From positions 1-42,482 of the IMG/VR virus record IMGVR_UViG_3300020201_000044: DNA of 42,482 nt; one strand, 5' to 3'. Shown piece by piece: positions 1,348 to 39,825 of the stretch; position 1 is the stretch's first letter; each line of letters starts with the position of its first letter. A program made the position numbers and the translations under genes. Below the pieces are notes generated by a model. That model was given only the letters and a program-made list of their open reading frames with translations. It was not told where the DNA came from and did no database searches. Source of the DNA: a virus.

Positions 1348-1677
1348 CTATAGGTCATCCTCGTCGTCATACTCCACGCGTTTAGAGCGTAGCCCATGGC
1401 CTAATAGGGGATCGCCTTGGGCCTTAGCGATCTTGCGCATTGCCCGTATGGCCATCTGGGAGGGCACCAGTGCCGGAAGGGGCGGCAGGGCGACTATAAG
1501 GAGGTCCCTGAATCCCACTTCGCCCTTGGTCAATTCCACGATGCGTATGGCCGCTTCCAAATGCGGGACCCGCTCTTTTTTAGTCCACTTGTAAAACGTA
1601 GAGAGTCCCACGCCCAGGACTGTGGCCATGGCCTGTTTGTCGATGTCGTGCGTTGCGACCCATTTAGACAGTTTCAT
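1348..1677 (-). CDS. Helix-turn-helix DNA-binding regulator
   Basis: A 109-residue protein whose first 50 residues form a Cro/YdaS-like helix-turn-helix: a short helix, then QAMATVLGVGLSTFYKWTK, in which a Gly turn is followed by a recognition helix. The ATG follows a strong AAGGGGGA site. It faces away from the HNH gene at 1728, so the short gap between them is a divergent control region. It probably represses one or both directions; the palindromes at 2798-2938 are candidate operators, but that link is inferred. The C-terminus is very acidic and ends in EYDDEDDL, a tail shared in type with five other proteins of this phage. Confidence 0.75.
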   Translation of the reverse strand: MKLSKWVATHDIDKQAMATVLGVGLSTFYKWTKKERVPHLEAAIRIVELTKGEVGFRDLLIVALPPLPALVPSQMAIRAMRKIAKAQGDPLLGHGLRSKRVEYDDEDDL

Positions 1678-1727
1678 TCAAAATCCCCCTTTGGACAAAA
1701 GAATAAAATCCCATTAACCTTTTGTAC

Positions 1728-2171
1728 ATGACTCTGCAAGCGGCCCCGTTTACCTCTAAAGAAATTGCCCGAATTCAAAAGGCATTAAGGAATCAGTCAC
1801 GTTTTTGGCGCCCAAAGCGTGAGGCCCTGAATCTCGCCCGCGAGAAAGTCCAGGTGGGTGTTACCAGGAAGGGCCTGCCTAAAACCAGGTTTGAGTATCG
1901 GTGCCTGATGGGCTGTGGTTTCAGGTCCTTTGACCCCAAGGGGCTGCAGGTGGACCATATCTGGGAAGTAGGGCCGATAGCTAAAAAGGCCGTCGGGGTG
2001 TTGGTCACCTCCAAAAAGCCACTTCCTTTGTTTAGAGTAGACTGGGGGGCCTATATTCAGGCCCTCTTGTGCCCATTGGGGCGGTTGCGTGCTATCTGTA
2101 GGCCGTGCCACGCTACAAAAACGGCCTATTACGCCAAGGGGCAGGAAATACCGGATGAACACTACCTTTAG
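1728..2171 (+). CDS. HNH endonuclease-like protein
   Basis: A 147-residue protein with the hallmarks of an HNH nuclease: a CLMGCG zinc knuckle near residue 60, VDHI about 15 residues later as the catalytic His, and ICRPCHATKT near the C-terminus as the second zinc pair and the last His. HNH proteins next to terminase genes often assist cleavage of packaged DNA, which fits the small terminase that follows and overlaps it by 17 bases. The start is ATG 1728; a TTG at 1722 is also in frame. No good ribosome site precedes it. TTGGAC (1691) and TTAACC (1714) with a 17-base spacer could produce a nearly leaderless message, which is only a suggestion. Confidence 0.8.
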   Translation: MTLQAAPFTSKEIARIQKALRNQSRFWRPKREALNLAREKVQVGVTRKGLPKTRFEYRCLMGCGFRSFDPKGLQVDHIWEVGPIAKKAVGVLVTSKKPLPLFRVDWGAYIQALLCPLGRLRAICRPCHATKTAYYAKGQEIPDEHYL

Positions 2172-2742
2172 CACTCTAAGCAAAATCTCCCGTCAGGTTA
2201 TTGCCGAGGACCCCAAAATATTGGACGAGATTGAATTGTGGTTGTGGAGGGAGGACGGCAATTACCGCCATTGGACCCGTAACTTTAAACGTGAGCTTTC
2301 TGGCACCCCTATCCCCTATAGGCCGGAATTCGCCTGGGCCCTGGTGGAGCACATGCGCGAAGGCCACTCTCCCAATTCCTTTGCCGCCAGGATGGGCGTC
2401 AGGCCCCAGACCATCACGACCTGGCTCAGGGAATTCGAGGAATTCCGTATCGCTGCTGAAATCGGTCACGGTGCCAGACTCCTGAAATGGGAAATTCGCA
2501 TGAACGACTCGGCCGATGGGTTGTCCAAAGCCCCTCCGGCCACTCTTATTTACGCCACTAACAACCACTTCCCAGACCTGTATAAAAACACCAAGGAGGG
2601 CGGGGGATCGGGAGATAAGGCCACCACCATCATTATTAATACAGGCATCAAAAAAAACGTCACTGTTGAAATAACAAAGTCTAGTTCTCCCACCCACCAA
2701 ATTTCCCTGGAATCCAACGATTCCGACCCCGACGACCTGTAA
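2155..2742 (+). CDS. terS: Terminase small subunit-like protein
   Basis: A 195-residue protein. Residues about 60-95 form a helix-turn-helix (SFAARMGVRPQTITTWLREF), followed by a segment ending ATLIYATNNHFPDLYKN. This resembles the region in small terminases where a hydrophobic stretch is followed by a Pro and an aromatic-Lys motif. It would bind the packaging site and load the large subunit. The start is ATG 2155 behind GGGGCAGGAA, overlapping the HNH gene. It sits 3.8 kb from the large subunit with an accessory block between them, an uncommon separation. The tail is acidic and ends DSDPDDL. Confidence 0.65.
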   Translation: MNTTFSTLSKISRQVIAEDPKILDEIELWLWREDGNYRHWTRNFKRELSGTPIPYRPEFAWALVEHMREGHSPNSFAARMGVRPQTITTWLREFEEFRIAAEIGHGARLLKWEIRMNDSADGLSKAPPATLIYATNNHFPDLYKNTKEGGGSGDKATTIIINTGIKKNVTVEITKSSSPTHQISLESNDSDPDDL

Positions 2743-3040
2743 AAATTTAATCGAAAAAACTAATTGTGCCGTTACTGAAAATTTTTTCCGGGGCCTACCG
2801 TGTAAAATTTACACACCCCCTCTGAAAAATTTACACGGTCACTTGACAGCTTTTTTTGAGCGCCTAAACGCCGGGTCTTATCCTTATATAGCAAATCCCA
2901 AATCATCCTGATCTTATACCCGTGTAAAAAATTCACGGCCAGAGAATTATCGTTCTGTAAATAGTACAGGGCCTATTGAACGTTTAAACGCCTCTGGTAA
3001 ATTGGGTTTAACGAAACGAACTGAGAACGATGGAGGTTTT
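2743..3040. promoter_or_regulatory. Operator-like region with three CCGTGTAAA elements
   Basis: This gene-free stretch holds a perfect palindrome GTGTAAA-A-TTTACAC (2800-2814), an inverted half site TTTACACGG (2830-2838) and a palindrome CCGTG-TAAAAAATT-CACGG (2920-2938). All share CCGTGTAAA or its complement. A TTGACA (2843-2848) lies beside the second element but has no good -10 at standard spacing. The layout suggests a repressor-controlled promoter for the accessory genes at 3041-5287. A GTTTAAAC palindrome lies at 2982-2989. Confidence 0.55.
2981..2990. repeat. CGTTTAAACG palindrome (intergenic copy)
   Basis: A perfect 10-bp palindrome, one of eleven GTTTAAAC sites in the window. It lies 51 bases upstream of the GGAGG site of the gene at 3041. 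Confidence 0.5.
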
Positions 3041-3271
3041 ATGGATGCTAAATTATTCGCGGAACTATACCAGGACATTATCGCCACTACGGACGGAGAA
3101 CGTGAAACCATCCACGCCCTGGAAAAACATTGCGACGAATATCTGGAAGATGAATGGGCGGAGGCGGCTTACAGACTTGTATTCAATCACGCTGGCACAA
3201 GAACTAAATTAGTTAAATCCTTGGTGTGGAACTACAGCACGCAGCGTCCAAGGTGGGGGGCGGAATCATGA
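3041..3271 (+). CDS. Hypothetical acidic protein, 76 residues
   Basis: Not recognised. The start is ATG 3041, preceded at good distance by GGAGG. It is rich in Glu and Asp in the first 45 residues and is predicted helical, with no Cys pairs or membrane segment. Its end overlaps the start of the SprT-like gene by four bases, so the two are probably co-translated. It is the first gene after the operator-like region. Small acidic proteins at the head of phage early or accessory operons are often host-takeover or anti-defence factors, but nothing in this sequence specifies that role. Confidence 0.6.
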   Translation: MDAKLFAELYQDIIATTDGERETIHALEKHCDEYLEDEWAEAAYRLVFNHAGTRTKLVKSLVWNYSTQRPRWGAES

Positions 3272-3828
3272 ATCGCGAAACTTGGCTAATCTCGTCCCTA
3301 CAATACCTCGCCCCCATGTTTTTAGAACATGGGTATAAAATCCCGGCCGCGTATATCTCGGTTTCGTGGCCATCGTCTAAAGCGCGCAAGACGATTGGCG
3401 AATGTTTTTCGTCCAAGCTTGTCGCCGACGGTAACTCCCACGCGATATTCATATCGCCTATGCTCGCCGACGGCCTTCGCGCTCTGGATGTTCTTGTACA
3501 TGAACTAGTACATGCAGCGGTTGGAGTAGAGCACGGACATAAGGGACCGTTTAAACATCTCGCTCGCGCTTTGGACTTGCAGGGGAAATTGACGGCAACG
3601 ATTGCAGGTCCGAAACTTTGCGCGCAGCTTGAAGATATTATCAGCGTGCTCGGGCCTTACCCGCATTCAGCAGTTGGGTTGTCGTCGAATCGAAAAAAAC
3701 AGGGGACTCGTCTTATAAAGATGGAGTGTGGCGAATGCGGGTACATTGCCCGAACGGCGGCGACTTGGATCGATCTTTTCGGCCCTACAATCTGCCCCTG
3801 TAATGAATGCCCTATGGGGTTGCCCTGA
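3268..3828 (+). CDS. SprT-like zinc metalloprotease domain protein
   Basis: A 186-residue protein. Around residue 77 it reads VLVHELVHAAVG, a HExxH zinc protease motif (HELVH), followed about 10 residues later by His in HGHKGPFKH, the usual third ligand region of the SprT/Spartan family. The C-terminal 40 residues hold two CxxC-like pairs (CGECG and CPCNEC), a zinc ribbon also typical of SprT proteins. The start is ATG 3268 after a GGTGGGGGG stretch. SprT-like proteins in cells repair DNA-protein crosslinks; in phages the role is unknown. The codon choice is looser than in the structural genes, which suggests a later acquisition. Confidence 0.8.
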   Translation: MNRETWLISSLQYLAPMFLEHGYKIPAAYISVSWPSSKARKTIGECFSSKLVADGNSHAIFISPMLADGLRALDVLVHELVHAAVGVEHGHKGPFKHLARALDLQGKLTATIAGPKLCAQLEDIISVLGPYPHSAVGLSSNRKKQGTRLIKMECGECGYIARTAATWIDLFGPTICPCNECPMGLP

Positions 3829-3905
3829 ATTTAGCCTCATTATACAAAGCGAAAAATCAATAACGGGCCGCTCAATTTCGAGAGGTCCTTTACCAGGAGT
3901 TCCTC

Positions 3906-4193
3906 ATGTTCAAGCCTATTTTGGCCCTTGCCCTGACCTTGCTCACCGCATCTGCATTCGCTGCAAATATTGAATGCGCGTTCATGACAAACAAAAAAGG
4001 GAAGGCAACTAAAAAGCTGGTACCTGTAAGCGTCGACGCTAAGCGCCTGGCGGATCACATCGGCGTAAAAACTTGCGATGGGGATCGTTTTGCGGAGCAA
4101 GCAGCGGGTAACGGCGGCATCAAAGCAACTCGTAGTGTTACTAAGGAAGAACGGAAGGCATATCTTTTGGACGGCGATGCTCTGAAGTTCTAA
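3906..4193 (+). CDS. Small exported protein with signal peptide
   Basis: A 95-residue protein that begins with a textbook Sec signal peptide: Lys at position 3, a hydrophobic core (PILALALTLLT), and a predicted cut after ASAFA. The mature part is about 75 residues, has two Cys (in IECAF and KTCDG) that could form a disulphide, and is otherwise basic and polar. The ATG follows AGGAG. A strong terminator sits just after the stop. A small periplasmic protein could alter the host envelope or exclude other phages, but no family was recognised. Confidence 0.7.
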   Translation: MFKPILALALTLLTASAFAANIECAFMTNKKGKATKKLVPVSVDAKRLADHIGVKTCDGDRFAEQAAGNGGIKATRSVTKEERKAYLLDGDALKF

Positions 4194-4220
4194 GTCAATC
4201 GGGTACTTAATTGAGTTATG

Positions 4221-4261
4221 AAAGGGCCCCATAAATTCGGGGCCCTTTCTTTTCTTTTCTT
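4221..4261 (+). terminator. Rho-independent terminator abutting the next ribosome site
   Basis: AAAGGGCCCC pairs perfectly with GGGGCCCTTT (10 bp, 8-base loop), followed by CTTTTCTTTTCTT. The GGAGG of the next gene begins at 4262, immediately after the T-rich tract. Confidence 0.85.
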
Positions 4262-4271
4262 GGAGGTTTTT

Positions 4272-4496
4272 ATGTACATGACATTGCAGCTTTTTTTGAC
4301 ACTGAATAGTCAAGTGATGGGGATTGGGGATTTAACTCTCGTGTGGGATCGGTATCAGGCGGCGGCCGCGCGTTGCCTTGAGCTTTCAAGAATACCCGAT
4401 AAGGCGGCCGAGGATGTATGTCTCATACGGTGGGAGACAAAAAACCATCCCCGCCTCACGTTTATGATTCCCACTAGATATCCCGGCCGCGAGTGA
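4272..4496 (+). CDS. Hypothetical protein, 74 residues
   Basis: Not recognised. The start is ATG 4272 with GGAGG five bases upstream; an in-frame ATG at 4218 lies inside the terminator and is rejected. The first 15 residues are hydrophobic, but no clear membrane helix is present. It contains two Cys and a WDRYQAAAARCLEL helix. It lies between two near-identical GC-rich terminators, so it stands as a self-contained cassette. Function unknown. Confidence 0.6.
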   Translation: MYMTLQLFLTLNSQVMGIGDLTLVWDRYQAAAARCLELSRIPDKAAEDVCLIRWETKNHPRLTFMIPTRYPGRE

Positions 4497-4507
4497 CCGA
4501 GACATAC

Positions 4508-4539
4508 GGGGCCCCACTTTCGGGGCCCTTTCTTTATTT
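4508..4539 (+). terminator. Second terminator abutting a ribosome site
   Basis: GGGCCCC and GGGGCCC pair over 7 bp with a 6-base loop, followed by TTTCTTTATTT. GGAGGAGAGGA of the next gene starts at 4540. The stem and tail closely resemble the terminator at 4221. Confidence 0.8.
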
Positions 4540-4553
4540 GGAGGAGAGGAACA

Positions 4554-4859
4554 ATGAGAATTTATAAATCTTCGCGAATCGTTATTCGCCCCGATGGGCG
4601 GGAGATTAAGAAGTCCAAGATCAGCATGGATGAGGCGGCCTTTCGTTATCTGCAGGAGGAGAATGCGGGGCTTTGCACCGCTTGCGCATCATTCAATTTT
4701 GGAAATCATGAACCGGATGCAGAGGACTATGATTGCGAGCAATGCGGAAAACCTAAAAGCCAGGGCATGGATAACGTGATGATGATGGGTTTAATACATA
4801 TTCTAGACGATGCGGAGTTGGACGAGATCAAGGGTACATCACAGGAGATAAGCGTATGA
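4554..4859 (+). CDS. Putative zinc-finger protein, 101 residues
   Basis: Residues about 40-70 carry CTAC and CEQC pairs separated by about 20 residues, a four-Cys arrangement that would bind one zinc ion. The region between is acidic and the C-terminal part is a predicted acidic helix (LDDAELDEI). The ATG follows GGAGGAGAGGA. The stop overlaps the start of the next gene by four bases. Small four-Cys proteins of phages commonly contact nucleic acid or host polymerase, but no family was identified. Confidence 0.6.
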   Translation: MRIYKSSRIVIRPDGREIKKSKISMDEAAFRYLQEENAGLCTACASFNFGNHEPDAEDYDCEQCGKPKSQGMDNVMMMGLIHILDDAELDEIKGTSQEISV

Positions 4860-5287
4860 TGAAGGTCGAGAAAATCATAATGTCGGATCGTGCTAAACCC
4901 TGGTGGGGCATACGTCAAGCCGACGGCCAGTTTTTCAAAGAGAATCCCGAGAGTAAAGGGTTTACGGCATGGTCAACCAAGCGGGCGGCGCTTGAATACC
5001 TCAATACCGTTATCCTTGAGAAACCCACGACTAATTATCGGACACTGGTCCAGGTCGAAGGTGGGCATGAGCTGAAAGTTTACGCCCATGCGATTACGGT
5101 CAATTTTTGGGAGTACTATATCACGTCCCCGCTAATCGAGGGTCAAGACATCGTATGGGCGTTAGTTATGGGGGATGAGCAGGAGATGGGGGACGTTTCT
5201 TTGAGTGAGATTAAGCCATATCTTAGATGTTTTACCCGCAATCTGAAGGATATCATGCCCGCTGCAGGATACCGGTGGAGGACATAA
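4856..5287 (+). CDS. Hypothetical protein, 143 residues
   Basis: Not recognised. The start overlaps the preceding stop (ATGA), with AGGAG upstream. The N-terminal part reads AKPWWGIRQADGQFF and then AWSTKRAALEYLN, a beta-then-helix pattern seen in small phage proteins of unknown role. It has no signal peptide, membrane helix or Cys motif. It is the last gene before the 780-base gene-free region with the iterons. Confidence 0.6.
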   Translation: MMKVEKIIMSDRAKPWWGIRQADGQFFKENPESKGFTAWSTKRAALEYLNTVILEKPTTNYRTLVQVEGGHELKVYAHAITVNFWEYYITSPLIEGQDIVWALVMGDEQEMGDVSLSEIKPYLRCFTRNLKDIMPAAGYRWRT

Positions 5288-5326
5288 CGATAAGGAACGA
5301 TGCTTTTCATCCTTTATATCCCACCG

Positions 5327-5336
5327 CGTTTAAACA
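5327..5336. repeat. CGTTTAAACA near-palindrome (left of iterons)
   Basis: Contains the 8-bp palindrome GTTTAAAC (5328-5335). With the copy at 5639-5648 it brackets the two iteron arrays. Confidence 0.45.
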
Positions 5337-5365
5337 TTCTACACAACGATAATGTCAAGGTTGTT

Positions 5366-5404
5366 GGGGGAGATTGGGGAGGAGGAGGAGAGGCGATGGG
5401 GGGG
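5366..5404 (+). repeat. G-rich purine tract, possible G-quadruplex
   Basis: An almost all-purine stretch with G runs of 5 (5366-5370), 4 (5376-5379) and 7 (5398-5404), and GG pairs between them. It could form a G-quadruplex on the upper strand and lies 55 bases before the first iteron. Confidence 0.4.
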
Positions 5405-5458
5405 ATATTTCCCGCCAGGTCTTGGGGATCTTTACCCATAACTCTCCCTCCCACCTTC

Positions 5459-5523
5459 TCACTAAGGATTCTCACTAAGTACTCTCACTATGTACAATCA
5501 CTATGTACAATCACTAAGCCCCG
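5459..5523 (+). repeat. Five tandem 13-bp iterons (TCACTAWG...)
   Basis: Units start at 5459, 5472, 5485, 5498 and 5511, exactly 13 bp apart. All begin TCACTA, followed by AGG, AGT, TGT, TGT and AGC. Units three and four are identical (TCACTATGTACAA). The strict period indicates adjacent binding sites for one protein. Confidence 0.8.
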
Positions 5524-5549
5524 CACCCTTCTCCCTCTCACCCTCTCAT

Positions 5550-5627
5550 TAGTGAGACTACATAATGAGAATACATAATGAGACGGTGTATTGAGAATGC
5601 ATACTGATACCCTATAGTGTGAGGTTT
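5550..5627 (-). repeat. Six 13-bp iterons in the opposite orientation
   Basis: Units start at 5550, 5563, 5576, 5589, 5602 and 5615, again 13 bp apart, with cores TAGTGAGA, TAATGAGA, TAATGAGA, TATTGAGA, TACTGATA and TAGTGTGA. TAGTGA is the reverse complement of TCACTA, so this array mirrors the one at 5459-5523. The offset between arrays is 39 bp, three full periods, so both share one register. Confidence 0.75.
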
Positions 5628-5638
5628 GAGGTACAAAG

Positions 5639-5648
5639 CGTTTAAACA
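5639..5648. repeat. CGTTTAAACA near-palindrome (right of iterons)
   Basis: Contains GTTTAAAC (5640-5647). It lies 12 bases after the last iteron. Confidence 0.45.
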
Positions 5649-5745
5649 TAGTGGCGGACTAGGGTGCCCCTCGCGCATTATTAAGGAGTTAGGGCGGGGG
5701 GTACCCCCAAAGCCCGCTTTCCATAATATAGGGATCGGGTCCCCC

Positions 5746-5920
5746 ACCCACATTTTAGAAGAAAGGGTTTTCTCCTTTTGTAGAATACCCCCCTCACCCA
5801 CATTTTAGAAGAAAGGGCTTTCTCCTTTTGTAGAATACCCACCCACATTTTAGAAGAAAGGGTTTTCTCCTTTTGTAGAATACCCTCCTCTACCCACATT
5901 TTAGAAGAAAGGGTTTTCTC
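5746..5920 (+). repeat. Four copies of a 42-bp repeat
   Basis: Copies begin at 5746, 5796, 5841 and 5892 (periods 50, 45 and 51). Each reads ACCCACATTTTAGAAGAAAG, then GGTTTTCTCCTTTTGTAGAA; the second copy has one base change and the fourth stops after TTTTCTC. AAAGG and CCTTT inside each unit could form a short hairpin. The uneven spacing breaks any reading frame, so the repeats act as DNA or RNA rather than protein. Confidence 0.8.
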
Positions 5921-6006
5921 GCCGACGAAAATCGCTCCATCCTGAGGCACTGGGATTTTCTGGAAGAAAGGGATTGACGCATTGCCCAAGTAGTCCTTTA
6001 CTCTTT

Positions 6007-6036
6007 TTGACAAAAGGGGGAACGGCTCGTTATTCT
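6007..6036 (+). promoter_or_regulatory. Sigma-70-type promoter of the morphogenesis block
   Basis: A perfect TTGACA (6007-6012), an 18-base spacer and TATTCT (6031-6036) lie 35 bases before the ATG at 6071. It fits transcription of the late block by host RNA polymerase; no phage polymerase gene was seen. Confidence 0.55.
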
Positions 6037-6070: not shown

Positions 6071-6550
6071 ATGAGCAAACGCGTTTTGGACCTAGAAACT
6101 GGGAAGTTCACCACCTACACCGGAAAATCCTGTGCTAAGTCCCTACAAGAGGCCGGACACCCAAACTTTCAAAAACCTGTAAAGGCGCTCAATCCCGCGC
6201 ATCCCACGTTCGCTATGGTGTCAAACGAAGAGAAAGAAGAAGTTACGGCCTTGGGCCTTGAGTCTTTGAGCGATGAAGAGCTTGACGCTGAACTTTCCAA
6301 GCGCAAGGCAATCCAGTCCGCAAAGGCCGCCAAGAAGCTTGCTGCCAAGGAAGAAGCAGCCACTGCAAAAGAGGGCGGGAGTCTGGGGGGTTTGACCCTT
6401 GAGGAGCTTAGCAAAATGCCCGTTGCCGCCATCAAAGGTCTTTTGGTTGAGAAGAAGGTGGATTTCTCCCGAATCCCGGCCTCTCCCAAGAAGCTCTTTG
6501 TGGATTTCGCCGCTCCTCACCTGGTGAAGTCTGAGCCCGACGATCTTTAA
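6071..6550 (+). CDS. Terminase-proximal protein with HeH/SAP-like C-terminus
   Basis: A 159-residue protein with AAGGAG before its ATG. The middle (about residues 55-105) is a long charged helix rich in Ala, Lys and Glu, possibly coiled coil. Residues about 110-150 read ELSKMPVAAIKGLLVEKKVD and then PKKLFVDFAAPHLV, which resembles HeH/LEM or SAP-type helix-extended loop-helix DNA-binding modules; this is a resemblance only. It is directly upstream of the large terminase, so a role in packaging initiation or as a second small terminase is possible. The tail is KSEPDDL, the acidic Asp-Leu ending shared with other proteins here. Confidence 0.65.
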   Translation: MSKRVLDLETGKFTTYTGKSCAKSLQEAGHPNFQKPVKALNPAHPTFAMVSNEEKEEVTALGLESLSDEELDAELSKRKAIQSAKAAKKLAAKEEAATAKEGGSLGGLTLEELSKMPVAAIKGLLVEKKVDFSRIPASPKKLFVDFAAPHLVKSEPDDL

Positions 6551-31864: not shown

Positions 31865-32262
31865 AGGATCTCCTGAAATACGCCAAAGTTTGGGCAACTC
31901 TTGTCTTTGTTGAAATGGTTGTGGGGTCTGACGTTCCAGAAGTGGATCCCGAAGACGTTCATGATTTTCCGGATCTCTTCGGCCGCCACGTCCAACTGGT
32001 GTGAGGGGAAGGTGTTCCGTCCGCCCAGGCAAATGCCGATGGAATTCTGATTATTCCCCTCGCAGTGGGCGCCCACCACATCGAAGGGTCTGCCCTTTTG
32101 AACCTTCCCTTTTTGGGTGATGAAAAGGTGGTATCCCACGTCCGAGAACCCTCGGGCCAGATGCCATTCTCTGATGATCGAAATGTCATCGTGGGCGGAG
32201 ATGCCCGAGTCGGAGCAATGGACCACCACCGTGTCGATTTTTTCAAGGCTTCTTTTGGTCAC
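31846..32262 (-). CDS. N-acetylmuramoyl-L-alanine amidase (T7 lysozyme-like)
   Basis: A 138-residue protein of the Amidase_2/T7 gp3.5 type; T7 lysozyme has 151. The N-terminal TVVVHCSDS has the first zinc His; ISIIREWHLARGFSDVGYHL is the conserved core; GAHCEGNNQNSIGICLGG follows; and HNHFNKDKSCPNF supplies the later His and Cys ligands. It cuts the bond between MurNAc and the first peptide residue. It is the only lysin candidate seen. Its leftward position, apart from the holin and spanins, mirrors T7, where lysozyme also represses the phage polymerase, but no such polymerase is seen here. GTG start overlaps the helicase stop (GTGA). Confidence 0.92.
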   Translation of the reverse strand: MTKRSLEKIDTVVVHCSDSGISAHDDISIIREWHLARGFSDVGYHLFITQKGKVQKGRPFDVVGAHCEGNNQNSIGICLGGRNTFPSHQLDVAAEEIRKIMNVFGIHFWNVRPHNHFNKDKSCPNFGVFQEILWRIYR

Positions 32263-33581
32263 ATGGCCCTCCGTAGAACTTCGGATTTATCCTCCAACTT
32301 CTGCATGATGCTGTGGTCCTGGAGGGATCCGATGATTCGATGAATGACGCAAGGGCGGTCTTGCCCAATGCGGTGGATGCGTTTAAACGCCTGGTCATTC
32401 TGCCCTGGAACCCAGGACAGGTCATTGGCCACGGCGTGGTGGGCGCGGGTCAGGGTGAACCCCACGCCCCCTGCCCTGTAGGTGGCCACCAGGACCTGTA
32501 TTTTCCCTTCCTGGAAGTCTTTGACGATCTGGTCTCTCTGGGCGATGGGGGTGGCGCCTGTGATTAGGGCGGTATTGGGGAGGGTCGTATAGAGGGCGTT
32601 GGAGCTTTCTAGGTGATCGGTGAAGATGATGATGGGGCCTAATCCTTGGTCGAGTAGTTCCTTCACATAGGCGCAGGTGAAGGGTGTTTTATTTAGGGCG
32701 CTTCGTGCCTTGGCGGGGGAGGAGCTTCCCTCTTCCCTTTTGGCGTTCCACTCGTCCATTAGCCCTTTATCTGCCCCCATATCGTCCAAATAAACGTCCT
32801 TAAAGATCATGGGTGGGAGGTCGATTCCGCCCACGCGCCGGAGGTATTTTAGGTGCAAAAGCTCGTCCAGGAGGGGCTTATTCCGGAACCCGTAGAATTC
32901 GACTACTGTCCGATACCCGAACCTTTTGACCTTCTTGAAACAGAATTTCTCTTGGAATAGTTCCTTGTAGGAGAAGGGTTTTCGTACGTCGGCCCCGTTA
33001 GTTTTTTCAGGATTGTAGGAGAGGGCGGTGAGCACTGAAAACCACTCGCCCACGTTGTTTTCAAGTGGCGTTCCTGAAAGGGCGATGAATCTTGGGGGAG
33101 CGCACTCAAAAAGGGCCTTATGGAACTTCCCAGCCCGTTTGGCGTCTCCTTCCACGGTCCCAAATGTTTTGATGTAGTGGACCTCGTCCGCGATGACCGT
33201 CCCATTTTTCGCCCACTCAAAACATTCTTCAAGGCGAGGATGGTTGTAACCGCAAACCAAAACATCATTCGGCCCTCCAGGACTGTCCTTTGAGAGAATA
33301 ACCGTGGCCGGAATGGGGTGTCTAAACATTTTGGCGAAAGTCATACGCCAAGTCTCCCGCAGATAGGCGGGACACACCACCAGGATGCGCCCGCCTGCCA
33401 TCCGAGCGGCCATGGCGGCCTGAAGGGATTTGCCCAGACCCATGTCGTCCCCAATCAGGAAGTACCTGTGGTTGTAGGCCTCTCGGGCGCCTTCGATTTG
33501 AAGGCGATAGGGTGTGATGTGGGCGGCCAGATTAGCGGCCGCCCACGTCTTAACTGCGGTCGTTGTGACCAGCTTTCTCAT
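32259..33581 (-). CDS. SNF2-family DNA helicase/translocase
   Basis: A 440-residue protein with the superfamily 2 motifs in order: LIGDDMGLGKS (motif I, residues 42-52), VIADEVH (motif II, 129-135), IALSGTPLENN (motif III), VATYRAGGVGFTLTRAHH (motif V) and QAFKRIHRIGQDRPC (motif VI). The IHRIGQ stretch is typical of SNF2 proteins. Such enzymes move along duplex DNA and remodel protein-DNA complexes; in phages they may assist recombination or replication. The ATG overlaps the preceding stop (TAATG) and its own stop overlaps the amidase GTG, so translation is coupled. Confidence 0.92.
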   Translation of the reverse strand: MRKLVTTTAVKTWAAANLAAHITPYRLQIEGAREAYNHRYFLIGDDMGLGKSLQAAMAARMAGGRILVVCPAYLRETWRMTFAKMFRHPIPATVILSKDSPGGPNDVLVCGYNHPRLEECFEWAKNGTVIADEVHYIKTFGTVEGDAKRAGKFHKALFECAPPRFIALSGTPLENNVGEWFSVLTALSYNPEKTNGADVRKPFSYKELFQEKFCFKKVKRFGYRTVVEFYGFRNKPLLDELLHLKYLRRVGGIDLPPMIFKDVYLDDMGADKGLMDEWNAKREEGSSSPAKARSALNKTPFTCAYVKELLDQGLGPIIIFTDHLESSNALYTTLPNTALITGATPIAQRDQIVKDFQEGKIQVLVATYRAGGVGFTLTRAHHAVANDLSWVPGQNDQAFKRIHRIGQDRPCVIHRIIGSLQDHSIMQKLEDKSEVLRRAM

Positions 33582-34198
33582 TACGCTTCGTCGTTTTCGT
33601 CGTCGTACTGTTCTAGGAGGGCGATCACACGGGCCTTAAAGGAGTCCAGGATATTTCCATCGGCGTCCATGAATTCGGCCTTAGCTTCGGTGAGCTTCTG
33701 GGAAACATAAGGTCCCTTGGGCTTGAGGGCCTCATCTTCCTTGTAATTTGCTCCCAACTCTTCCTTAAGAATAGGGCCCAATTGTGTACGGTGTTCTTTG
33801 ATCTCTCGGTCAAAGATAACCGCAGTGGACTTAGCGACTTTCCCGGCCTTGGCAGGTCGCTCGGACTTCTTTTCGTCGGTCCCCTTCTTGGGGGGCTTGG
33901 CGACCGGGACGGGAGGGGTCTCCTCCTCCTCCACCACTTCTTCTTCTTCTGAGGAAGAAGCTTCTTCAACAGCGGCCACCTTCGCCTTGGCCGCGGCCTT
34001 GACTATGGTGGGGAGGGAAGCTTTAGTTCCATTGGCGATGGCCACCAGTTCGGAAAGATTGGTACGGATTTCGGTGAAAAGGTTTTCCTTAGCTTCCGTC
34101 AAACCTTCCCCAGCGGCCAGTTCAACAGTCCCGCCCACTTTCGCGTAGTGGTCGCCGCACTTGGCGGTCAGGACCATAGTTAGTTCCTTAAAATGCAT
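33581..34198 (-). CDS. Hypothetical protein with acidic linker
   Basis: A 205-residue protein not recognised by family. ATG 34198 has AAGGAGA upstream. The first 75 residues look like a small alpha/beta domain (FKELTMVLTAKCGDHYAKVG). The middle (about 80-125) is low complexity: Glu/Ser/Pro-rich then Lys-rich, likely a flexible linker. The C-terminal 70 residues form a second domain ending YDDENDEA, again very acidic. Its position between the nuclease/regulator genes and the helicase suggests a part in DNA handling. The layout, two domains and a linker, is common in ssDNA-binding or recombination accessory proteins. Confidence 0.6.
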   Translation of the reverse strand: MHFKELTMVLTAKCGDHYAKVGGTVELAAGEGLTEAKENLFTEIRTNLSELVAIANGTKASLPTIVKAAAKAKVAAVEEASSSEEEEVVEEEETPPVPVAKPPKKGTDEKKSERPAKAGKVAKSTAVIFDREIKEHRTQLGPILKEELGANYKEDEALKPKGPYVSQKLTEAKAEFMDADGNILDSFKARVIALLEQYDDENDEA

Positions 34199-34232
34199 AT
34201 CAGTCTCCTTAGGTTTCTCCGCCTTATGGCGG

Positions 34233-34484
34233 TTATTTCTTATCTTTGGGCATAACTCGGGCAAGGGTGCAGTTCAGCGCCTTGGTTAGGCGGTAAATCA
34301 CCGGGAGGGAGGGGCATCTCAGACCCGCCTCAATTTGACTTAGACACGCGGGGGTTATGCAGGCCTTGCGGGAGAGAACGACCTGGGTGTGTCCCCGACT
34401 CAGTCGAATGCTCTTCAACTTCTCCCCGATCCCCTTGGTGAATTCGCTCTCCCGCCGTTTAACTGGGGCTTTTTTCTTTCTCAT
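34233..34484 (-). CDS. XRE-family helix-turn-helix protein
   Basis: An 83-residue protein. Residues about 18-75 form a complete HTH_XRE domain: IGEKLKSIRLSRGHTQVVLS, then ITPACLSQIEAGLRCPS and a closing LPVIYRLTKALNCTL. The basic N-terminus (RKKKAPVKRR) may aid DNA contact. ATG 34484 has GGAGAAGG upstream and overlaps the nuclease stop at 34481. It is probably an autoregulated repressor of the leftward operon, though its operator was not identified. Confidence 0.85.
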   Translation of the reverse strand: MRKKKAPVKRRESEFTKGIGEKLKSIRLSRGHTQVVLSRKACITPACLSQIEAGLRCPSLPVIYRLTKALNCTLARVMPKDKK

Positions 34485-35356
34485 TCGGCCTTCTCCCATA
34501 AATCAACCTCCCACTGGGCGGGTGATAGTTCAATAGGCCCGTCCTCAAAGGTCCAGCCATGTTTGTTATTTTCCCCCAGAGTGGTTAGGGCCTTCGTGTA
34601 CTGGGCGCGCCCAATCTCCAGGTCCCGAGGGGTCATGCGCACCGTCTGGGCATTGGTGTGCTTCTTTGAAGCGAAGATCCAATACCATTGCGTGACGGGT
34701 TTAAACGGCGCCTTGGTGATCCGTATCCACTCATTCACGGCATCGATGTAGAGGGCGGCGGATAGGCGGTAATTCCTCTCAGAAAGGGCGGTCCGCATCG
34801 TGTGGCGGTCCCGGCAGGACCCCGCCATGCTCTTGAGGTCTCCCCCGTAGGACTCTTCCTCGCTTCCCAGTTCCATCAAGGCCAGAATGTCGAATCTCAC
34901 CTTCACTCTCACGCCGTGGAGAGGGACAAAGACGGACACCTCGTAGCGCGCCTCTTCGTGCTGGATCAGATCCAGACAGAAGGGGGAGCGCCGCACGCCA
35001 TCCACACAGGCCATCGCCTCAGCGTGATCCCTGGTGGTGAGAATGGTTTTGCCAGGGTTTTGCTCCTGGAAGGCGGTCCACATTTTACCCGCCCGTGTGC
35101 CCTTGAAAACGACATAGTCGGTTTTGATAAGGTGGGGCTCCAAAAGGGCCGTGTGGAAGTAGGAGCCTATGTCGAAGTAGTTCTTCGATTCATTCTCCGT
35201 TTCCTCTTCGCGAGAGACGTACAGGCGGTAGAATTTCTCGGGATCCTCCAACAACTTCTTCAATTGAGAGCTGGAGAAGTGGTGGTTTTTGGGGGTTTCG
35301 GAAAGTGCGTGGTACTGGGCATTCGAGATGCCGTCCCAATAAAGTCCGGTTTTCAT
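34481..35356 (-). CDS. PD-(D/E)XK exonuclease (RecE/exodeoxyribonuclease VIII-like)
   Basis: A 291-residue protein with the layout of phage RecE-type nucleases: an opening YWDGISNAQYHALSE, then FSSSQLKKLLEDPEKFYRLY, FDIGSYFHTALLEP near residue 65, a middle VKVRFDIL segment with the acidic residue, GGDLKSMAGS as the D-x-K catalytic pair near residue 175, and NYRLSAALYIDAV as the closing motif IV-like Gln/Arg-x-x-Ala-x-Tyr. It probably resects duplex ends from 5' to produce single strands for annealing or host DNA breakdown. AAGGATGAC precedes the ATG. Next to the OB-like protein it may make a recombination pair. Confidence 0.82.
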   Translation of the reverse strand: MKTGLYWDGISNAQYHALSETPKNHHFSSSQLKKLLEDPEKFYRLYVSREEETENESKNYFDIGSYFHTALLEPHLIKTDYVVFKGTRAGKMWTAFQEQNPGKTILTTRDHAEAMACVDGVRRSPFCLDLIQHEEARYEVSVFVPLHGVRVKVRFDILALMELGSEEESYGGDLKSMAGSCRDRHTMRTALSERNYRLSAALYIDAVNEWIRITKAPFKPVTQWYWIFASKKHTNAQTVRMTPRDLEIGRAQYTKALTTLGENNKHGWTFEDGPIELSPAQWEVDLWEKAE

Positions 35357-35365
35357 GTCATCCTT

Positions 35366-35782
35366 TTAGAGATCGTCTGAGTCTTCGTCGATCTTCTTCA
35401 TATAGGCGGAATCCTCGTCCGCATCGGCCACACCAATGTCCAGGTTGATGGCCTCTTTGCCTTTGTAAGCGCCTTTGGTCATGATTTCCCTGCCCAGGTA
35501 CTCCACCCGTACAACCGACCCGATCTCCACTTTCTCCATTACGTTGTCCAGGAGAGTGGCGGAATTGAGGACAAAATCTTTCCCGATAACCAGCTTCTTG
35601 GCCGCTTCCTTATTCCCGAAGTGGCCTTCTTCCAGTTCCAGGACGTAGTTGGGCTTCCCGTAACGGTCCTCCTCGATCTTCTCGATGAGCTTGCCCATCA
35701 CATAATCGCCCTCGTCCCACTGAGACCAGGGGCGATAGTTTTTGGCACCAGTCAGCTTTTTGAAAACTCTCTTATTCGGCAT
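35366..35782 (-). CDS. Putative single-stranded DNA-binding protein (OB-like)
   Basis: A 138-residue protein with a very strong GAGGAGG site. The pattern W-x-x-GDYVMGKL, then RYGKPNYVLELEE, a helix and IGSVVRVEYLGREI followed by YKGKEAINLDIG fits a five-stranded OB fold as in several phage ssDNA-binding proteins. The last 20 residues are acidic and end DEDSDDL. Acidic C-terminal tips of SSBs recruit partner enzymes; here the polymerase next door carries a like ending. Its position between polymerase and nuclease supports the assignment, but the family was not directly recognised. Confidence 0.7.
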   Translation of the reverse strand: MPNKRVFKKLTGAKNYRPWSQWDEGDYVMGKLIEKIEEDRYGKPNYVLELEEGHFGNKEAAKKLVIGKDFVLNSATLLDNVMEKVEIGSVVRVEYLGREIMTKGAYKGKEAINLDIGVADADEDSAYMKKIDEDSDDL

Positions 35783-35800
35783 GTGTCCTCCTCAGACTTC

Positions 35801-37819
35801 TTATAGATCACTGTGGTCTTGGTCCTTCAGGTAGCTTCCGAACCGTTTATATTCAGCCTCCCCCCTCTTGTCAAGATATAGGCGACTAATTTTCACAGAA
35901 CGGTTAGCCGGAGTTTTTATCTTTCCATCTGCTTGGAATCCCGGACCCCAGGCGTGGGCGTCCATTCTGCACGTCGCTTTTTCCTTTCTCTTCCCTGTGA
36001 AAAAGTGCCGGAAAGCGCGGTCCATGCAGTCCATGAGAATGTCCGCCTTCTCCCAATCCCCGTGATCGATCTCAGCGTAGATGGCATCGTGGTTAGGGAA
36101 AAGGATGTCGAGCCCAGCATCCTGGGCGAAGGCAACCGCCTTGCGCATGATCGCCGCGCCCGCGGCCTGAATTAAACAGTTCGCCACACTCCTAAAATTG
36201 TCGTTGTCTCCCCACATCACCCAATCATCCAGGAGGACCATGTGCCCGTCATGGGCGTAGTCCCCCACAAGCGTCTCCCGAAAATCGGAGAAAATCGGGA
36301 AGGCGTCGTCGAACTTGTCAATGAGGTCCTGGGCATCCTCTTCCGTGTGCTCCACACCCGTGTCATTGGTGAGCTTTATGGAGAGCCCGAACTTGGTCAT
36401 GAGGTAGGAGATCCCTAGCGTGGTTGCCTTAAAGAGATCCCTTTCCTTCTCGTAGTTCTCGCGCTTCCCGTCCATCGGAACCGCCTTGGCGAGCTTGGCG
36501 AAGAACAGGTACACGTCCCCCGATTCATACGCCCTAATCATGTTGGGGTCTGAGCTACAAATCGCCGAGATCAGGAATTCCTGCGAGGACCAGTCCACCC
36601 CGATGATGCATTTCCCGGGTGCCGGTTCCACCATGACCCGCATCCAAGCGGCCTTCAGGAATATGAATGATGTGGAGGAAGGTTGGTTTCGGGAGGACTG
36701 CGCCCCGTAAATATTGAAGTACGATCGCACCCGCCCATCACTGCCGACGGCGTCCCAGAATGTACGGTCCCCCGTCCTCGGGATAAACCCGGATATCTGC
36801 TGCTTCGTTTTCAGATACCGCACCATCTGCGCCCCGAAATTGTCCTTCGGGTACTCATGTCGGAAATCATAGAAACGCGTCCACGCATCTAGGGCCAGAG
36901 ACAGGTCCCCTCCGGCCGTTTTCTGCCAGGCATCCAGGATTCCCTTTTTGTGATTTCTCTTGATCCACTCCCCCGTCTCCTTTTTCTTCCACTTAAATTT
37001 GAATTCCCGCTTGTCGAACTGGAATGGCTTGATGTCGGGGAACAGGTTGTTGATATCCCTCTGCATCTCGAACAAAATCTGAGGGGCAGCGGCCGAGAAA
37101 TTCTTGGTCGCCTCCAGGTTGATAGGGTAGCCGATTGTAACCATGGCCGCCGTTCGAGCGGCGAATTCCCCTCGGACAAGCATCCCCGCCAAAATCCTCT
37201 CGTCACTCCATTTGGGCATCCGGCGCTTCCACTCTGCCCAGATCCAGTCAAATATCTCATGGAGGAGTTCCACGTCGGAGGCGTTGTAGGCGAGAATGTC
37301 CTCCCGGTCCTTAATGCCAAAGGCCGCCGGGTCGCTTATGATCAGGTCCCTCATTTTTGTTTTGTGGGCCGTGTCGATCGTCTTCCCCAGAATTTTGAAC
37401 GTCCCCGCCGCCAACGATTGTTGGGGTTTCGAGCTTGCGCCCGCTTTGTTGTCCTCCTCGGTCCTCTTCCACTTCGGTAAAGGCGGGCGCGTAGTACGCT
37501 CCTTTCCGTCGATCAGCTGCTTTCCGTAGGATAGTGCGTGGTCGTGGTTCTGTAGGCATCGGTACTCCAGGAATAGGTCGATCCATTTGTAGTCGAGACA
37601 AGCGCGAGGATGTTTAAACAAGCTGTTGATCGAGCGGCATTCGGCCTCTGCGGCCCAGGCGAGGAAGTAAGCATCCGTATTTCGACCCAACTCCTCTTTT
37701 AGATCCCTCTTCCCCGAGGGGGAGAAGTGCAGCCAATAGGTTTTGGGGGTGCCCTTCTTCACAGTACAGGACACCAGATTGACGAATCTCTCTGATGTCC
37801 GGTTAAACTCGAAGTCCAT
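35801..37819 (-). CDS. Family A DNA polymerase with 3'-5' exonuclease domain
   Basis: A 672-residue polymerase. The exonuclease opens with MDFEFN (Exo I, Asp and Glu) and has YNASDVELLHEIF (Exo III). The polymerase has IIGVDWSSQEFLISAI (motif A), RDLFKATTLGISYLMTKFGL (motif B, Lys and Tyr) and FPNHDAIYAEID (motif C). Motif C reads His-Asp-Ala rather than the usual His-Asp-Glu. ATG 37819 places the catalytic Asp at residue 2, leaving no room for the first strand; a GTG at 37894 gives 25 more residues but overlaps the neighbour by 55 bases. Neither start has a ribosome site. The end is DQDHSDL. Confidence 0.93.
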   Translation of the reverse strand: MDFEFNRTSERFVNLVSCTVKKGTPKTYWLHFSPSGKRDLKEELGRNTDAYFLAWAAEAECRSINSLFKHPRACLDYKWIDLFLEYRCLQNHDHALSYGKQLIDGKERTTRPPLPKWKRTEEDNKAGASSKPQQSLAAGTFKILGKTIDTAHKTKMRDLIISDPAAFGIKDREDILAYNASDVELLHEIFDWIWAEWKRRMPKWSDERILAGMLVRGEFAARTAAMVTIGYPINLEATKNFSAAAPQILFEMQRDINNLFPDIKPFQFDKREFKFKWKKKETGEWIKRNHKKGILDAWQKTAGGDLSLALDAWTRFYDFRHEYPKDNFGAQMVRYLKTKQQISGFIPRTGDRTFWDAVGSDGRVRSYFNIYGAQSSRNQPSSTSFIFLKAAWMRVMVEPAPGKCIIGVDWSSQEFLISAICSSDPNMIRAYESGDVYLFFAKLAKAVPMDGKRENYEKERDLFKATTLGISYLMTKFGLSIKLTNDTGVEHTEEDAQDLIDKFDDAFPIFSDFRETLVGDYAHDGHMVLLDDWVMWGDNDNFRSVANCLIQAAGAAIMRKAVAFAQDAGLDILFPNHDAIYAEIDHGDWEKADILMDCMDRAFRHFFTGKRKEKATCRMDAHAWGPGFQADGKIKTPANRSVKISRLYLDKRGEAEYKRFGSYLKDQDHSDL

Positions 37820-37839
37820 GGCGATAAGGTTGGAGGGTT

Positions 37840-38688
37840 TTATTTGAAATATCCCGATTGTTTGTTGCAGACAGATCCGGCGAAGGGGGAGCACGACGTG
37901 AAACCGTATTCCAGCATAGCAATGGGCTTGCCCTTGTAGGCCTTATAGTCGTCACACTCGCTGTATTTGTTGCATTGCTCGATCCAAACGCCGTCAAAAT
38001 GTGGCGCCAGATCGACGGCATTTTGCGGACCGTTTTTGGCCATAATTGCCAACCCCTTCGAGTGCGCCAGGTCCGCCAGCTTCTTTTGGGCGACAACGTT
38101 TTCAGCGCGTGTGATTTTAATGCCAGATTCAGAAACGTTCCCGTCCTGGTCCATGTTGTCTAACTCGATACCGTCCCCGCCCATGGCCTTACAGCGGTCC
38201 ATCCTAGCTCCTAGGAAAGCGTGAAGGGAGGGTTTACGCGGGTCTCCCCACCTTTCGCCCTTCCAATCGGCCATTTCCTTGCCCCAGGCGTCCCTGGGGT
38301 ACTGGGCGGCATCGTCGCGCCAGTCCTCATACCCCTCGGACGTGTAGCAGATTATCTTTACACCCTTGGAGTGGGCGTGGTCGGCGACCTTCGTCCCTCC
38401 CACATCACTCATCTGTTCTAGTTCTACTGTCACGATCTCGACGGACCGAAGCTTGGCCTTGAAATCCGCCAGACCGTCGAAGTGGAAGATTTGGAATGAG
38501 TTTATGGTTCCGGGTTTCCACCATGTTCCCGTTACCGGGGGAGTCGTGGGCGCAGGTGTTGGAGTGGGAGGGACCACCACAACTGGGGGTTCCTCGGGAT
38601 CGGGGGGCAGGGTCGGGCCGGACCCACACCCACCCGCAAATAGCAGGGGCAGCAACAGCCCTAGGTAAAACGCATTGCGATTCTTCAT
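37840..38688 (-). CDS. GH114-family glycosidase, predicted lipoprotein
   Basis: A 282-residue protein. ATG 38688 has CGGAG upstream. It starts with a basic signal and hydrophobic core ending PLLFAGGC, a lipobox, so the Cys is likely lipidated. A Pro/Thr linker (about residues 25-55) leads to a TIM-barrel domain with GH114 marks: GVKIICYTSEGYEDWR, WKGERWGDPRKPS and GGDGIELDNMDQDGN, the last holding the acidic residues of the active site. Characterised GH114 enzymes cut alpha-1,4-linked galactosamine polymers of biofilm matrix. The product would sit on an outer or inner membrane facing outward. A phage copy in a non-virion operon is unusual. Confidence 0.85.
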   Translation of the reverse strand: MKNRNAFYLGLLLPLLFAGGCGSGPTLPPDPEEPPVVVVPPTPTPAPTTPPVTGTWWKPGTINSFQIFHFDGLADFKAKLRSVEIVTVELEQMSDVGGTKVADHAHSKGVKIICYTSEGYEDWRDDAAQYPRDAWGKEMADWKGERWGDPRKPSLHAFLGARMDRCKAMGGDGIELDNMDQDGNVSESGIKITRAENVVAQKKLADLAHSKGLAIMAKNGPQNAVDLAPHFDGVWIEQCNKYSECDDYKAYKGKPIAMLEYGFTSCSPFAGSVCNKQSGYFK

Positions 38689-38692
38689 TCGT

Positions 38693-39550
38693 TCACTCCG
38701 TTTGTTTAAATATGATCCGCCCATTTTCTAGGGCGCCAAATCCGAATTTACTGACACAGGTCCCACTCTCAGGGGGGTGCTTGCAAGGACTCTTTTTAGA
38801 CCCACTCCCAAATGTGTAATATTGTTTTCCGTTCTTTATATATGAGGCGGCGAGATGTTCGTGCCCGTGGATGACGGTCACTTGCGCCGGAAGGGAATCC
38901 AAAAACCCCTTGTAATCCCATGAAATGTCACTCCTGTGATTAGAGAATCCCACTCGATTGTGATGGGCCAGGAGGTACGTGGTTTTCCTCTCGCAGAGTT
39001 TTACGGCCCTACGGATGAATTTTTCTTGGTTGCTCAAGATGCCGGGTTCCTTGGCCACAGAATACACCGTGGAGTCCATCGAAATCACGCAGGCATTCGG
39101 GAAGGTGAAGGCCCGATAGTAATTTTTAAAGGAACATCCATAGGTATCCGAATTGGCCGCCATCCAATTCCGCTCCTCCCTGTTCAGGGAGAGACTGTCA
39201 TGGTTCCCCAGGATACAAACGGTCGTCCAAAGGGAATTCAGGAATGGGTTAATGTTCTCTGCAAAATCCTGAGGGCCTGAGATCCCAGTAGGGTACCCTA
39301 AATCCCCGAGCAGGAACACGAATTGGGGATTGAATCCCCGAATTCCCTCAATCAGCCTCACCCTTTCAACCCGGTTCTCTCCCGTATCCCCTACAAAAAC
39401 GGCCCGCTCCAGGGGGGAGGCGACCCTGGTCACGTTGACCTCAAACCCCCTCACCTCGTAGGCCCAATAGGCCCCGGCCCCGCAAATGGCGAGGGCGGCG
39501 GTCCCCAGGACTATCTCCGCTTTCCCCTTCAACTTTTTCCAAAAGCTCAT
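38693..39550 (-). CDS. Membrane-anchored calcineurin-like metallophosphoesterase
   Basis: A 285-residue protein. A basic start and one hydrophobic helix (AEIVLGTAALAICGAGAYWA) make a signal anchor. The outer part has the metallophosphoesterase motifs in order: VFVGDTG, FLLGDLGYP, ILGNHDS, LLAHHNRVG and VIHGHEHLA. The GDTG start in place of D-x-H resembles purple acid phosphatases. It has several Cys, consistent with periplasmic disulphides. The enzyme would remove phosphate from envelope or matrix substrates. The stop is 5 bases before the GH114 ATG and its ATG overlaps the stop of the 39547 gene, so the three form an operon. Confidence 0.88.
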   Translation of the reverse strand: MSFWKKLKGKAEIVLGTAALAICGAGAYWAYEVRGFEVNVTRVASPLERAVFVGDTGENRVERVRLIEGIRGFNPQFVFLLGDLGYPTGISGPQDFAENINPFLNSLWTTVCILGNHDSLSLNREERNWMAANSDTYGCSFKNYYRAFTFPNACVISMDSTVYSVAKEPGILSNQEKFIRRAVKLCERKTTYLLAHHNRVGFSNHRSDISWDYKGFLDSLPAQVTVIHGHEHLAASYIKNGKQYYTFGSGSKKSPCKHPPESGTCVSKFGFGALENGRIIFKQTE

Positions 39551-39825
39551 AAATCATCCTCTTCTTCTTGGCCGATACGTTTAAACGCTTCTCGTCTCTT
39601 TAAAAAATCCCGCATACTTTTGGAGAGGGTGTCCAGGTTAGTCCATTTGTGCGCATTACTCCAAACTGCCTCCCCCTCCTTCTTAACCTCGAACGAAATG
39701 TAGGCGTGGTCGATGAAGGACATGTCGTAGCGGACCTCGTAACCGGACTCGTACATCTCCCCCAGGGCGACTCCAAAATCTTGCCATTTGGCCTTATTTC
39801 CGGGTTCCATTCTTTTTAAACTCAT
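39547..39825 (-). CDS. Hypothetical protein with acidic DDL tail, 92 residues
   Basis: Not recognised. A small alpha/beta protein (DFGVALGEMYESGYEVRYDM, then SFEVKKEGEAVW) ending in a Lys/Arg helix (RDFLKRREAFKRIG) and the acidic QEEEDDL. ATG 39825 lacks a strong ribosome site; ATG 39810 is an alternative. Its start overlaps the Fis-like gene by 32 bases and its stop overlaps the phosphoesterase ATG. The basic helix followed by an acidic tip resembles DNA- or RNA-binding proteins with a self-masking tail. Confidence 0.6.
   Translation of the reverse strand: MSLKRMEPGNKAKWQDFGVALGEMYESGYEVRYDMSFIDHAYISFEVKKEGEAVWSNAHKWTNLDTLSKSMRDFLKRREAFKRIGQEEEDDL

What the first reader, a model, noticed from the sequence alone, without database searches (positions are those of the whole stretch)
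1348..39825. Six unrelated proteins share an acidic tail ending in (D/S)DL
The HTH regulator (1348, EYDDEDDL), small terminase (2155, DSDPDDL), terminase-proximal protein (6071, KSEPDDL), ssDNA-binding candidate (35366, DEDSDDL), DNA polymerase (35801, DQDHSDL) and the 39547 protein (QEEEDDL) end alike. The last three codons differ in every case: GATGACCTA, GACGACCTG, GACGATCTT, GACGATCTC, AGTGATCTA and GATGATTTA. So this is not a copied DNA repeat but a repeatedly kept peptide. None of the virion structural proteins has it. SSB and T7 gp2.5 use acidic C-terminal tips to recruit partners; this phage may use one tip across regulation, replication and packaging to bind a shared hub, host or phage encoded. 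I know of no description of such a phage-wide tag.
Basis: partly seen in the sequence, partly recalled or inferred. Interest (0 to 1): 0.85.

Follow-up and report, generated by a model that had tools for sequence, protein, structure and literature searches.

The report
Genome-wide shared C-terminal docking tag
In this phage and many relatives, unrelated DNA-handling proteins (polymerase, single-strand binding protein, helicase, nucleases, small terminase) end in the same short acidic, greasy peptide, whose last residues change together from phage to phage, as if all of them plug into one common socket that was not known.

Summary
All six endings are exact, and a seventh protein (HNH nuclease, 1722-2171, ...PDEHYL) belongs with them. 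The window has 7 such tails against about 1 expected. In 27 related phage genomes carrying one orphan gene (here 'c5'; window 33581-34264), polymerase, SSB, SF3 helicase, exonuclease, resolvase and small terminase carry an acidic tail ending in L, I or F. The exact ending is genome-specific and shared by non-homologous proteins: all -F in one genome, -I in another, -DLL or -DDL in others (z = 11-13 over permuted genomes; z = 8.8 with one genome per clade). In 13 relatives without detectable c5 the same enzymes lack the tail (4/43 versus 60/81 non-SSB proteins) and coherence is zero; the polymerase then stops where the tail would start. Of all gene families, c5 presence predicts tails best. The pattern also occurs in cultured phages: in Enc34 the primase, exonuclease, SSB, small terminase, a c5-like small protein and three other proteins end in ...(D/E)EV. 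Best reading: a phage-wide docking tag for one receptor, probably the c5 protein. Binding is inferred, not shown. Nearest known logic: the interchangeable clamp-binding C-termini of T4 gp43, gp55 and gp33.

The parts
35801..37894 (-). Family A DNA polymerase, tail ...KDQDHSDL (true start probably inside, near the IAMDFEFN motif)
   Evidence: PF00476 and phrog_17; tail past the conserved Y(F/L) end is 7-17 aa in c5-positive and 1-6 aa in c5-negative relatives
35366..35782 (-). OB-fold ssDNA-binding protein, tail ...IDEDSDDL
   Evidence: AlphaFold2 model pLDDT 84.6 with OB-like core; weak Foldseek matches to OB-fold DNA-binding proteins; orthologues in 16 of the first 23 genomes
2089..2742 (+). 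Small terminase (start likely 2155), tail ...NDSDPDDL
   Evidence: phrog_309; tailed orthologues, e.g. ...EDDSDLL...SDDSDML...NPADDL
1722..2171 (+). HNH endonuclease, tail ...EIPDEHYL (seventh member)
   Evidence: clusters with HNH genes ending ...QDPLDFL and ...IDPMDYL
1348..1677 (-). HTH regulator (CI-repressor-type HTH), tail ...EYDDEDDL
   Evidence: PF07022; tail read directly
6071..6550 (+). Protein of unknown function next to the large terminase, tail ...KSEPDDL
   Evidence: no PHROG match; tail read directly
39547..39825 (-). Small protein of unknown function, tail ...QEEEDDL
   Evidence: no family match; tail read directly
33581..34264 (-). c5: candidate tail receptor/hub. N-terminal beta-beta-alpha domain, disordered charged linker, C-terminal helical domain. 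Translation likely starts at 34198 (MHFKEL)
   Evidence: present in all 27 tail-sharing relatives and undetected in the 13 without; AlphaFold2 C-domain pLDDT about 97, no PDB match
34481..35356 (-). RecB/ExoVIII-type exonuclease, tail lost in this genome (...DLWEKAE)
   Evidence: phrog_412; orthologues end ...DSDLL...GDLL...LDDL
32259..33581 (-). SNF2-type helicase, consistently without the tail (internal control)
   Evidence: phrog_62; 2 of 27 tailed in c5-positive genomes, no coherence with polymerase tails

Best explanation
The tails are a phage-wide docking tag: a flexible acidic segment ending in one to three hydrophobic residues and the free carboxylate, added to otherwise unrelated replication, recombination and packaging proteins so that all of them can bind the same pocket. 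Because one pocket reads all tails, a change in the pocket selects the same change in every tail, which gives each genome its own ending. The most likely pocket lies on the orphan protein c5 (window 33581-34264) and its phrog_408/7721/18562-type counterparts in cultured phages. This protein would act as a scaffold gathering polymerase, SSB, helicase, exonuclease, resolvase and small terminase at the replicating or recombining DNA and handing it on to packaging. Shown: shared tails, their genome-specific concordance, their near absence without c5. Inferred: docking as the function, and c5 as receptor (about 0.5 for c5 itself; about 0.8 for some shared receptor).
For: (1) 60/81 non-SSB core proteins tailed in c5-positive genomes against 4/43 in c5-negative (Fisher 1e-12). 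(2) Within-genome similarity of tails of non-homologous proteins: z = 11-13, 0 of 2000 permutations; 0.76 against 0.47 same last residue; with one genome per clade z = 8.8; in c5-negative genomes z = -0.2. (3) Non-orthologous replacements carry the local tail: gp2.5/Enc34-type SSB and DUF2800 exonuclease in G003, G008 (SSB only), G014, L106, L139. (4) c5 is the best predictor of tails among all families (p = 1.5e-6; next best 0.006). (5) c5 C-domain type tracks the last residue: L in 78 of 90 core C-termini with type 1, F or I in 20 of 30 with type 2. (6) Polymerase cores end at Y(F/L), and the tail is a clean 7-17 aa addition only in c5-positive genomes. (7) Independent cultured phages: Enc34 has 7 called proteins ending (D/E)(D/E)V against 0.1 expected, plus its c5-like protein; Redjac, SS2019XI and FoX4 show the same with their own endings.
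Against: No binding datum. c5 presence changes only 3-4 times on the polymerase tree, and strongly supported branches force only one change, so the correlation has few independent events. c5 itself carries the tail in a few genomes and in the Casjensviridae, which fits a scaffold but weakens 'pure receptor'. The two c5 C-domain types are not detectably homologous. Proteus phage ASh-2020a has the small protein but few tails. Three of the 13 c5-negative loci end before the place where c5 would lie.
Confidence: 0.62

Rival explanations
1. The tails bind a host protein, such as the host sliding clamp or another replisome hub; endings differ because hosts differ.
For: Acidic-hydrophobic C-termini are how T4 proteins bind their clamp (PMC2988020); genome-specific endings could follow host-specific pockets.
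Against: Only 3 of 89 tails resemble the bacterial clamp motif and none ends in PF like a bacterial SSB tip. Presence follows a phage gene. Hosts are unknown, so this is not excluded.
Confidence: 0.17
2. The hub is the SSB itself: tails of partners insert into the OB-fold groove, as the SSB's own tail does.
For: In Enc34 crystals the SSB C-terminus lies in the groove of a neighbour (PMC5686142).
Against: c5-negative genomes keep an SSB, often with an acidic tip, yet polymerase, exonuclease and helicase lack tails. SSBs of two distinguishable families (OB protein of the window; Enc34/gp2.5 type) serve the same tag system.
Confidence: 0.12
3. Generic acidic tips: DNA mimicry that tunes DNA binding, or protection from proteases; no common receptor.
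For: Enc34 SSB uses its acidic tail to avoid dsDNA (PMC5686142); all core tagged proteins handle DNA.
Against: Does not predict that non-homologous proteins of one genome agree on the last 1-3 residues (z about 11) nor the dependence on c5.
Confidence: 0.07
4. Chance or composition bias of this genome.
For: Acidic C-termini are common in phage proteins.
Against: Shuffle controls and concordance in 27 genomes.
Confidence: 0.02

Closest known systems
T4 sliding clamp gp45 and the C-terminal epitopes of gp43, gp55 and gp33
   Different: Here the set includes SSB, SF3 helicase, exonucleases, resolvase and small terminase; no clamp or clamp loader was recognised in the window; endings are genome-specific; the hub candidate is an orphan two-domain protein
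T7 acidic C-terminal tails of gp4 helicase and gp2.5 SSB binding gp5 polymerase
   Same: Acidic tails on helicase and SSB organise the replisome (PMC12593628; PMC5686142)
   Different: Here the polymerase itself carries the tail in c5-positive genomes, so it is unlikely to be the only receptor
Bacterial SSB C-terminal tip (SSB-Ct)
   Same: Acidic residues followed by a hydrophobic carboxy-terminus that recruits partners (own knowledge)
   Different: In SSB-Ct one protein carries the tip and many partners read it; here many proteins carry it. No tail ends in PF
Enc34/DUF2815 SSB - DUF2800 exonuclease - PolA modules with phrog_408/7721/18562 small protein
   Same: Same gene neighbourhood, same small-protein family as type-2 c5, and tails shared by exonuclease, SSB, primase and small terminase in Casjensviridae
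   Different: Polymerase lacks the tail there (...FYRKD); the shared tail is not mentioned in the passages of the Enc34 SSB paper read here

Membership tests
T4-type clamp-binding C-terminal epitopes | Several unrelated phage proteins share a hydrophobic-acidic C-terminus | tested here: met
T4-type clamp-binding C-terminal epitopes | Hub is a phage-encoded ring-shaped sliding clamp with clamp loader | tested here: inconclusive
   No clamp or loader among the family matches of the window genes scanned, and no such family tracks the tails; a full domain scan of the relatives was not run. c5 has no clamp-like fold in Foldseek
T4-type clamp-binding C-terminal epitopes | C-termini interchangeable and bind the hub | not testable with these tools
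   needs biochemistry
Bacterial beta-clamp binding motif | Q-x-x-[LMI]-x-[FL]-type motif | tested here: not met
   3 of 89 tails
SSB-Ct mimic | Ends in (D)D[IL]PF | tested here: not met
   0 of 120 core C-termini end in PF
T7 gp2.5-like SSB | OB fold plus acidic C-terminal tail (35366-35782) | tested here: inconclusive
   AlphaFold2 OB-like fold and acidic tail are present, but no PHROG/Pfam membership: works like it, membership not shown
phrog_408/7721/18562 small proteins | C-terminal helical domain matches the profiles | tested here: inconclusive
   met for type-2 c5 of G003, G008, L106 and L137; not met for the window's own type-1 c5, which shares only the N-terminal domain with type-2 c5

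The most novel reading that the evidence does not exclude
Many tailed phages, including cultured ones, run replication, recombination and genome packaging through one dedicated scaffold protein that reads a genome-specific C-terminal 'password' of 2-4 residues carried by every client; tag and reader co-evolve, and newly acquired genes are recruited by gaining the local password.
Probability: 0.45. Interest if true: 0.93.

Novelty: new variant of a known kind. Interest (0 to 1): 0.86.

Why it matters
If right, it gives a sequence-only way to list the members of a phage's DNA-processing machine, including unknown proteins: read the last few residues. It links replication to packaging physically through the small terminase tail. 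It gives a testable role to an abundant orphan protein family (phrog_408/7721/18562) in phages of Salmonella, Staphylococcus, Pseudomonas and others. And it is a rare natural case of a multi-partner peptide code changing in concert.

Tried and rejected
Host SSB-tip mimicry (no PF ending) and bacterial clamp motif (3 of 89) were tested and rejected as simple readings. SNF2 helicase as hub: present with and without tails, so not predictive. SSB as hub: present in c5-negative genomes. DNA-level copying of the tail: six different codon sets. tblastn of the window's c5 and of a type-2 c5 against cultured phages found nothing; the link to cultured phages came from profile matches. Foldseek of c5 against PDB and BFVD gave nothing significant. 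hhalign of the two c5 C-domain types found no homology. Papers on a shared phage C-terminal tag were not found in the held library; subscription journals are mostly missing there.

Full report
Observation. D-D-L followed by TAA/TGA occurs 4 times against 0.20 expected. With a composition-based tail definition the window has 7 positives against about 1 expected. The seventh is an HNH endonuclease (1722-2171). Virion genes do not share the ending. The window is an IMG/VR virus record of 42,482 bases; its portal resembles that of Pelagibacter phage HTVC010P and others. Host unknown.

Relatives. The polymerase found about 40 usable related contigs in IMG/VR. I grouped their genes by BLAST and profile HMMs. 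In most genomes polymerase, SSB, an SF3 helicase (DUF5906/primase-type), RecB-like exonucleases, small terminase and a PD-(D/E)XK Holliday-junction-type nuclease end in an acidic tail with a hydrophobic last residue. The ending is a property of the genome, not of the protein family. L139...YESMQF...TTNMEF...YKDMDF...ASDFEF...YSQLEF. L106...YNEDEI...DELDI...GADDI...DFTDI. L120...DSELL...DADLL...SSDLL...EDSDLL. G015...LEDL...NDDL...MEDL...LDDL...PDDL. The window's (D/S)DL is one of these flavours.

Statistics. For non-SSB core proteins the tail is present in 60 of 81 cases in genomes with gene c5 and in 4 of 43 without it (Fisher 1e-12); other genes of the same genomes have it in 62 of 1028. Similarity of the last three residues between non-homologous proteins of one genome is far above genome-permuted controls (z = 11.4, 0 of 2000). 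It stays so with one genome per clade (z = 8.8) and without SSB (z = 10.0), and vanishes in c5-negative genomes (z = -0.2) and for the tail-less SNF2 helicase (z = 0.2). Accessory genes match their own genome's ending 16 times against 5.6 expected from other genomes' endings.

The partner gene. c5 (window 33581-34264, minus strand) lies beside the exonuclease and the SNF2 helicase. AlphaFold2 gives an N-terminal beta-beta-alpha domain, a disordered linker and a confident helical C-domain, with no significant match in the PDB or BFVD. Asking without prior choice which family best predicts tails, c5 comes first (p = 1.5e-6), the next at p = 0.006. G007 is a natural experiment: a 39-kb contig with polymerase, SSB, SF3 helicase, exonuclease, small terminase and SNF2 helicase, no c5 and no tails. 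In c5-negative polymerases the chain stops 1-6 residues after the conserved Y(F/L) motif, in c5-positive ones 7-17 residues after it (four entries where the pattern hit an earlier motif were read by eye). On the polymerase tree c5 needs 3-4 changes, but well-supported branches force only one. Three of 13 c5-negative loci (G023, L098, L125) end before c5's expected place; leaving them out, the count is 3 of 34. The other c5-negative loci, except G012, include the SNF2 gene beside which c5 normally lies. Gene calls are mechanical and all E-values refer to sets made here.

Two c5 types. In G003, G008, G014, L106, L137 and L139 the C-domain is of another type; in G003, G008, L106 and L137 it matches phrog_408, 7721, 18562 or 32389. 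These genomes also use Enc34/gp2.5-type SSB (PF10991) and DUF2800 exonuclease genes, not the genes found in the others, and most of these nevertheless carry the local tail. Last residues are F or I in 20 of 30 there, against L in 78 of 90 with type 1. They form two clades on the polymerase tree, so this is one or two events.

Cultured phages. The same small-protein family lies directly upstream of DUF2800-type exonuclease, Enc34-type SSB and PolA in phages of Staphylococcus, Streptococcus, Paenibacillus, Corynebacterium, Croceibacter and others; there exonuclease and SSB have acidic (D/E)DF-type tails, not always at the very end, and the polymerase none. In Casjensviridae the sharing is striking. 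Enc34: primase ...DDEDEV, exonuclease ...DDDEV, SSB ...DEDEV, small terminase ...DDDEV, recombination-associated exonuclease ...EEDDEV, the c5-like ORF3 ...EEEEV and two more; 7 called genes against 0.1 expected. Redjac...DDDDEV on three proteins. SS2019XI: primase, exonuclease, SSB and small protein end in DL. FoX4: DEL, EDL, EEL, DEL. The small proteins match phrog_7721. Proteus phage ASh-2020a is an exception with few tails.

Mechanism. A common receptor explains why unrelated proteins of one genome agree on the last residues and why they change together. DNA mimicry or protease evasion do not. The short strictly C-terminal element suggests recognition of the carboxylate plus one or two hydrophobic side chains, with acidic residues adding affinity, as in SSB tips and T4/T7 tails. 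c5 is the best candidate by co-occurrence and by C-domain type, not by any binding test; its long charged linker and two domains fit a scaffold. That c5 sometimes carries the tail itself would fit self-association. The presence of the tag on the small terminase suggests hand-over of replicated DNA to packaging; this is inference.

Known background. T4 gp43, gp55 and gp33 have highly similar, freely interchangeable hydrophobic-acidic C-termini that bind the sliding clamp (PMC2988020). T7 gp4 acidic tails bind basic patches of gp5 (PMC12593628). The Enc34 SSB paper describes its acidic C-terminus, its contact with a neighbour's groove in the crystal and its effect on dsDNA binding (PMC5686142); the passages read there do not mention the same ending on other proteins. 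No description of a genome-wide tag was found in the held library. The principle is thus known; the breadth, the genome-specific concordance and the hub candidate appear new.

Noticed in passing
window 37840-38724 and 38693-39550: A GH114-type glycoside hydrolase with a signal-like N-terminus and a metallophosphoesterase lie inside the replication operon between polymerase and the 39547 gene; unusual cargo there.
   Followed up: partly
window 3226-3828: Protein with an HELVHAAVG zinc-protease-like motif and C-terminal CxxC pairs, SprT-like by eye, in the early region.
   Followed up: no
window 42210-42482: Right end of the record is a low-complexity (GCCGTCGCCGTCTCC)-type repeat coding MAETATAMTETATA; may mark an assembly end.
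   Followed up: no
L005 21111-24792 and 30344-33854: The Silvanigrella-associated phage record CP017838 repeats several consecutive genes and contains a run of N; likely an assembly artefact.
   Followed up: no
L091-L097, L147-L157: phrog_408/7721/18562/5053 small proteins (charged linker plus short helical C-domain) sit at or next to the phage exonuclease in phages of many hosts; no function is annotated.
   Followed up: partly
L156 4566-6543: In Bordetella phage BPP-1 exonuclease and SSB end alike in a different way (...VEDLV, ...AADLV).
   Followed up: partly
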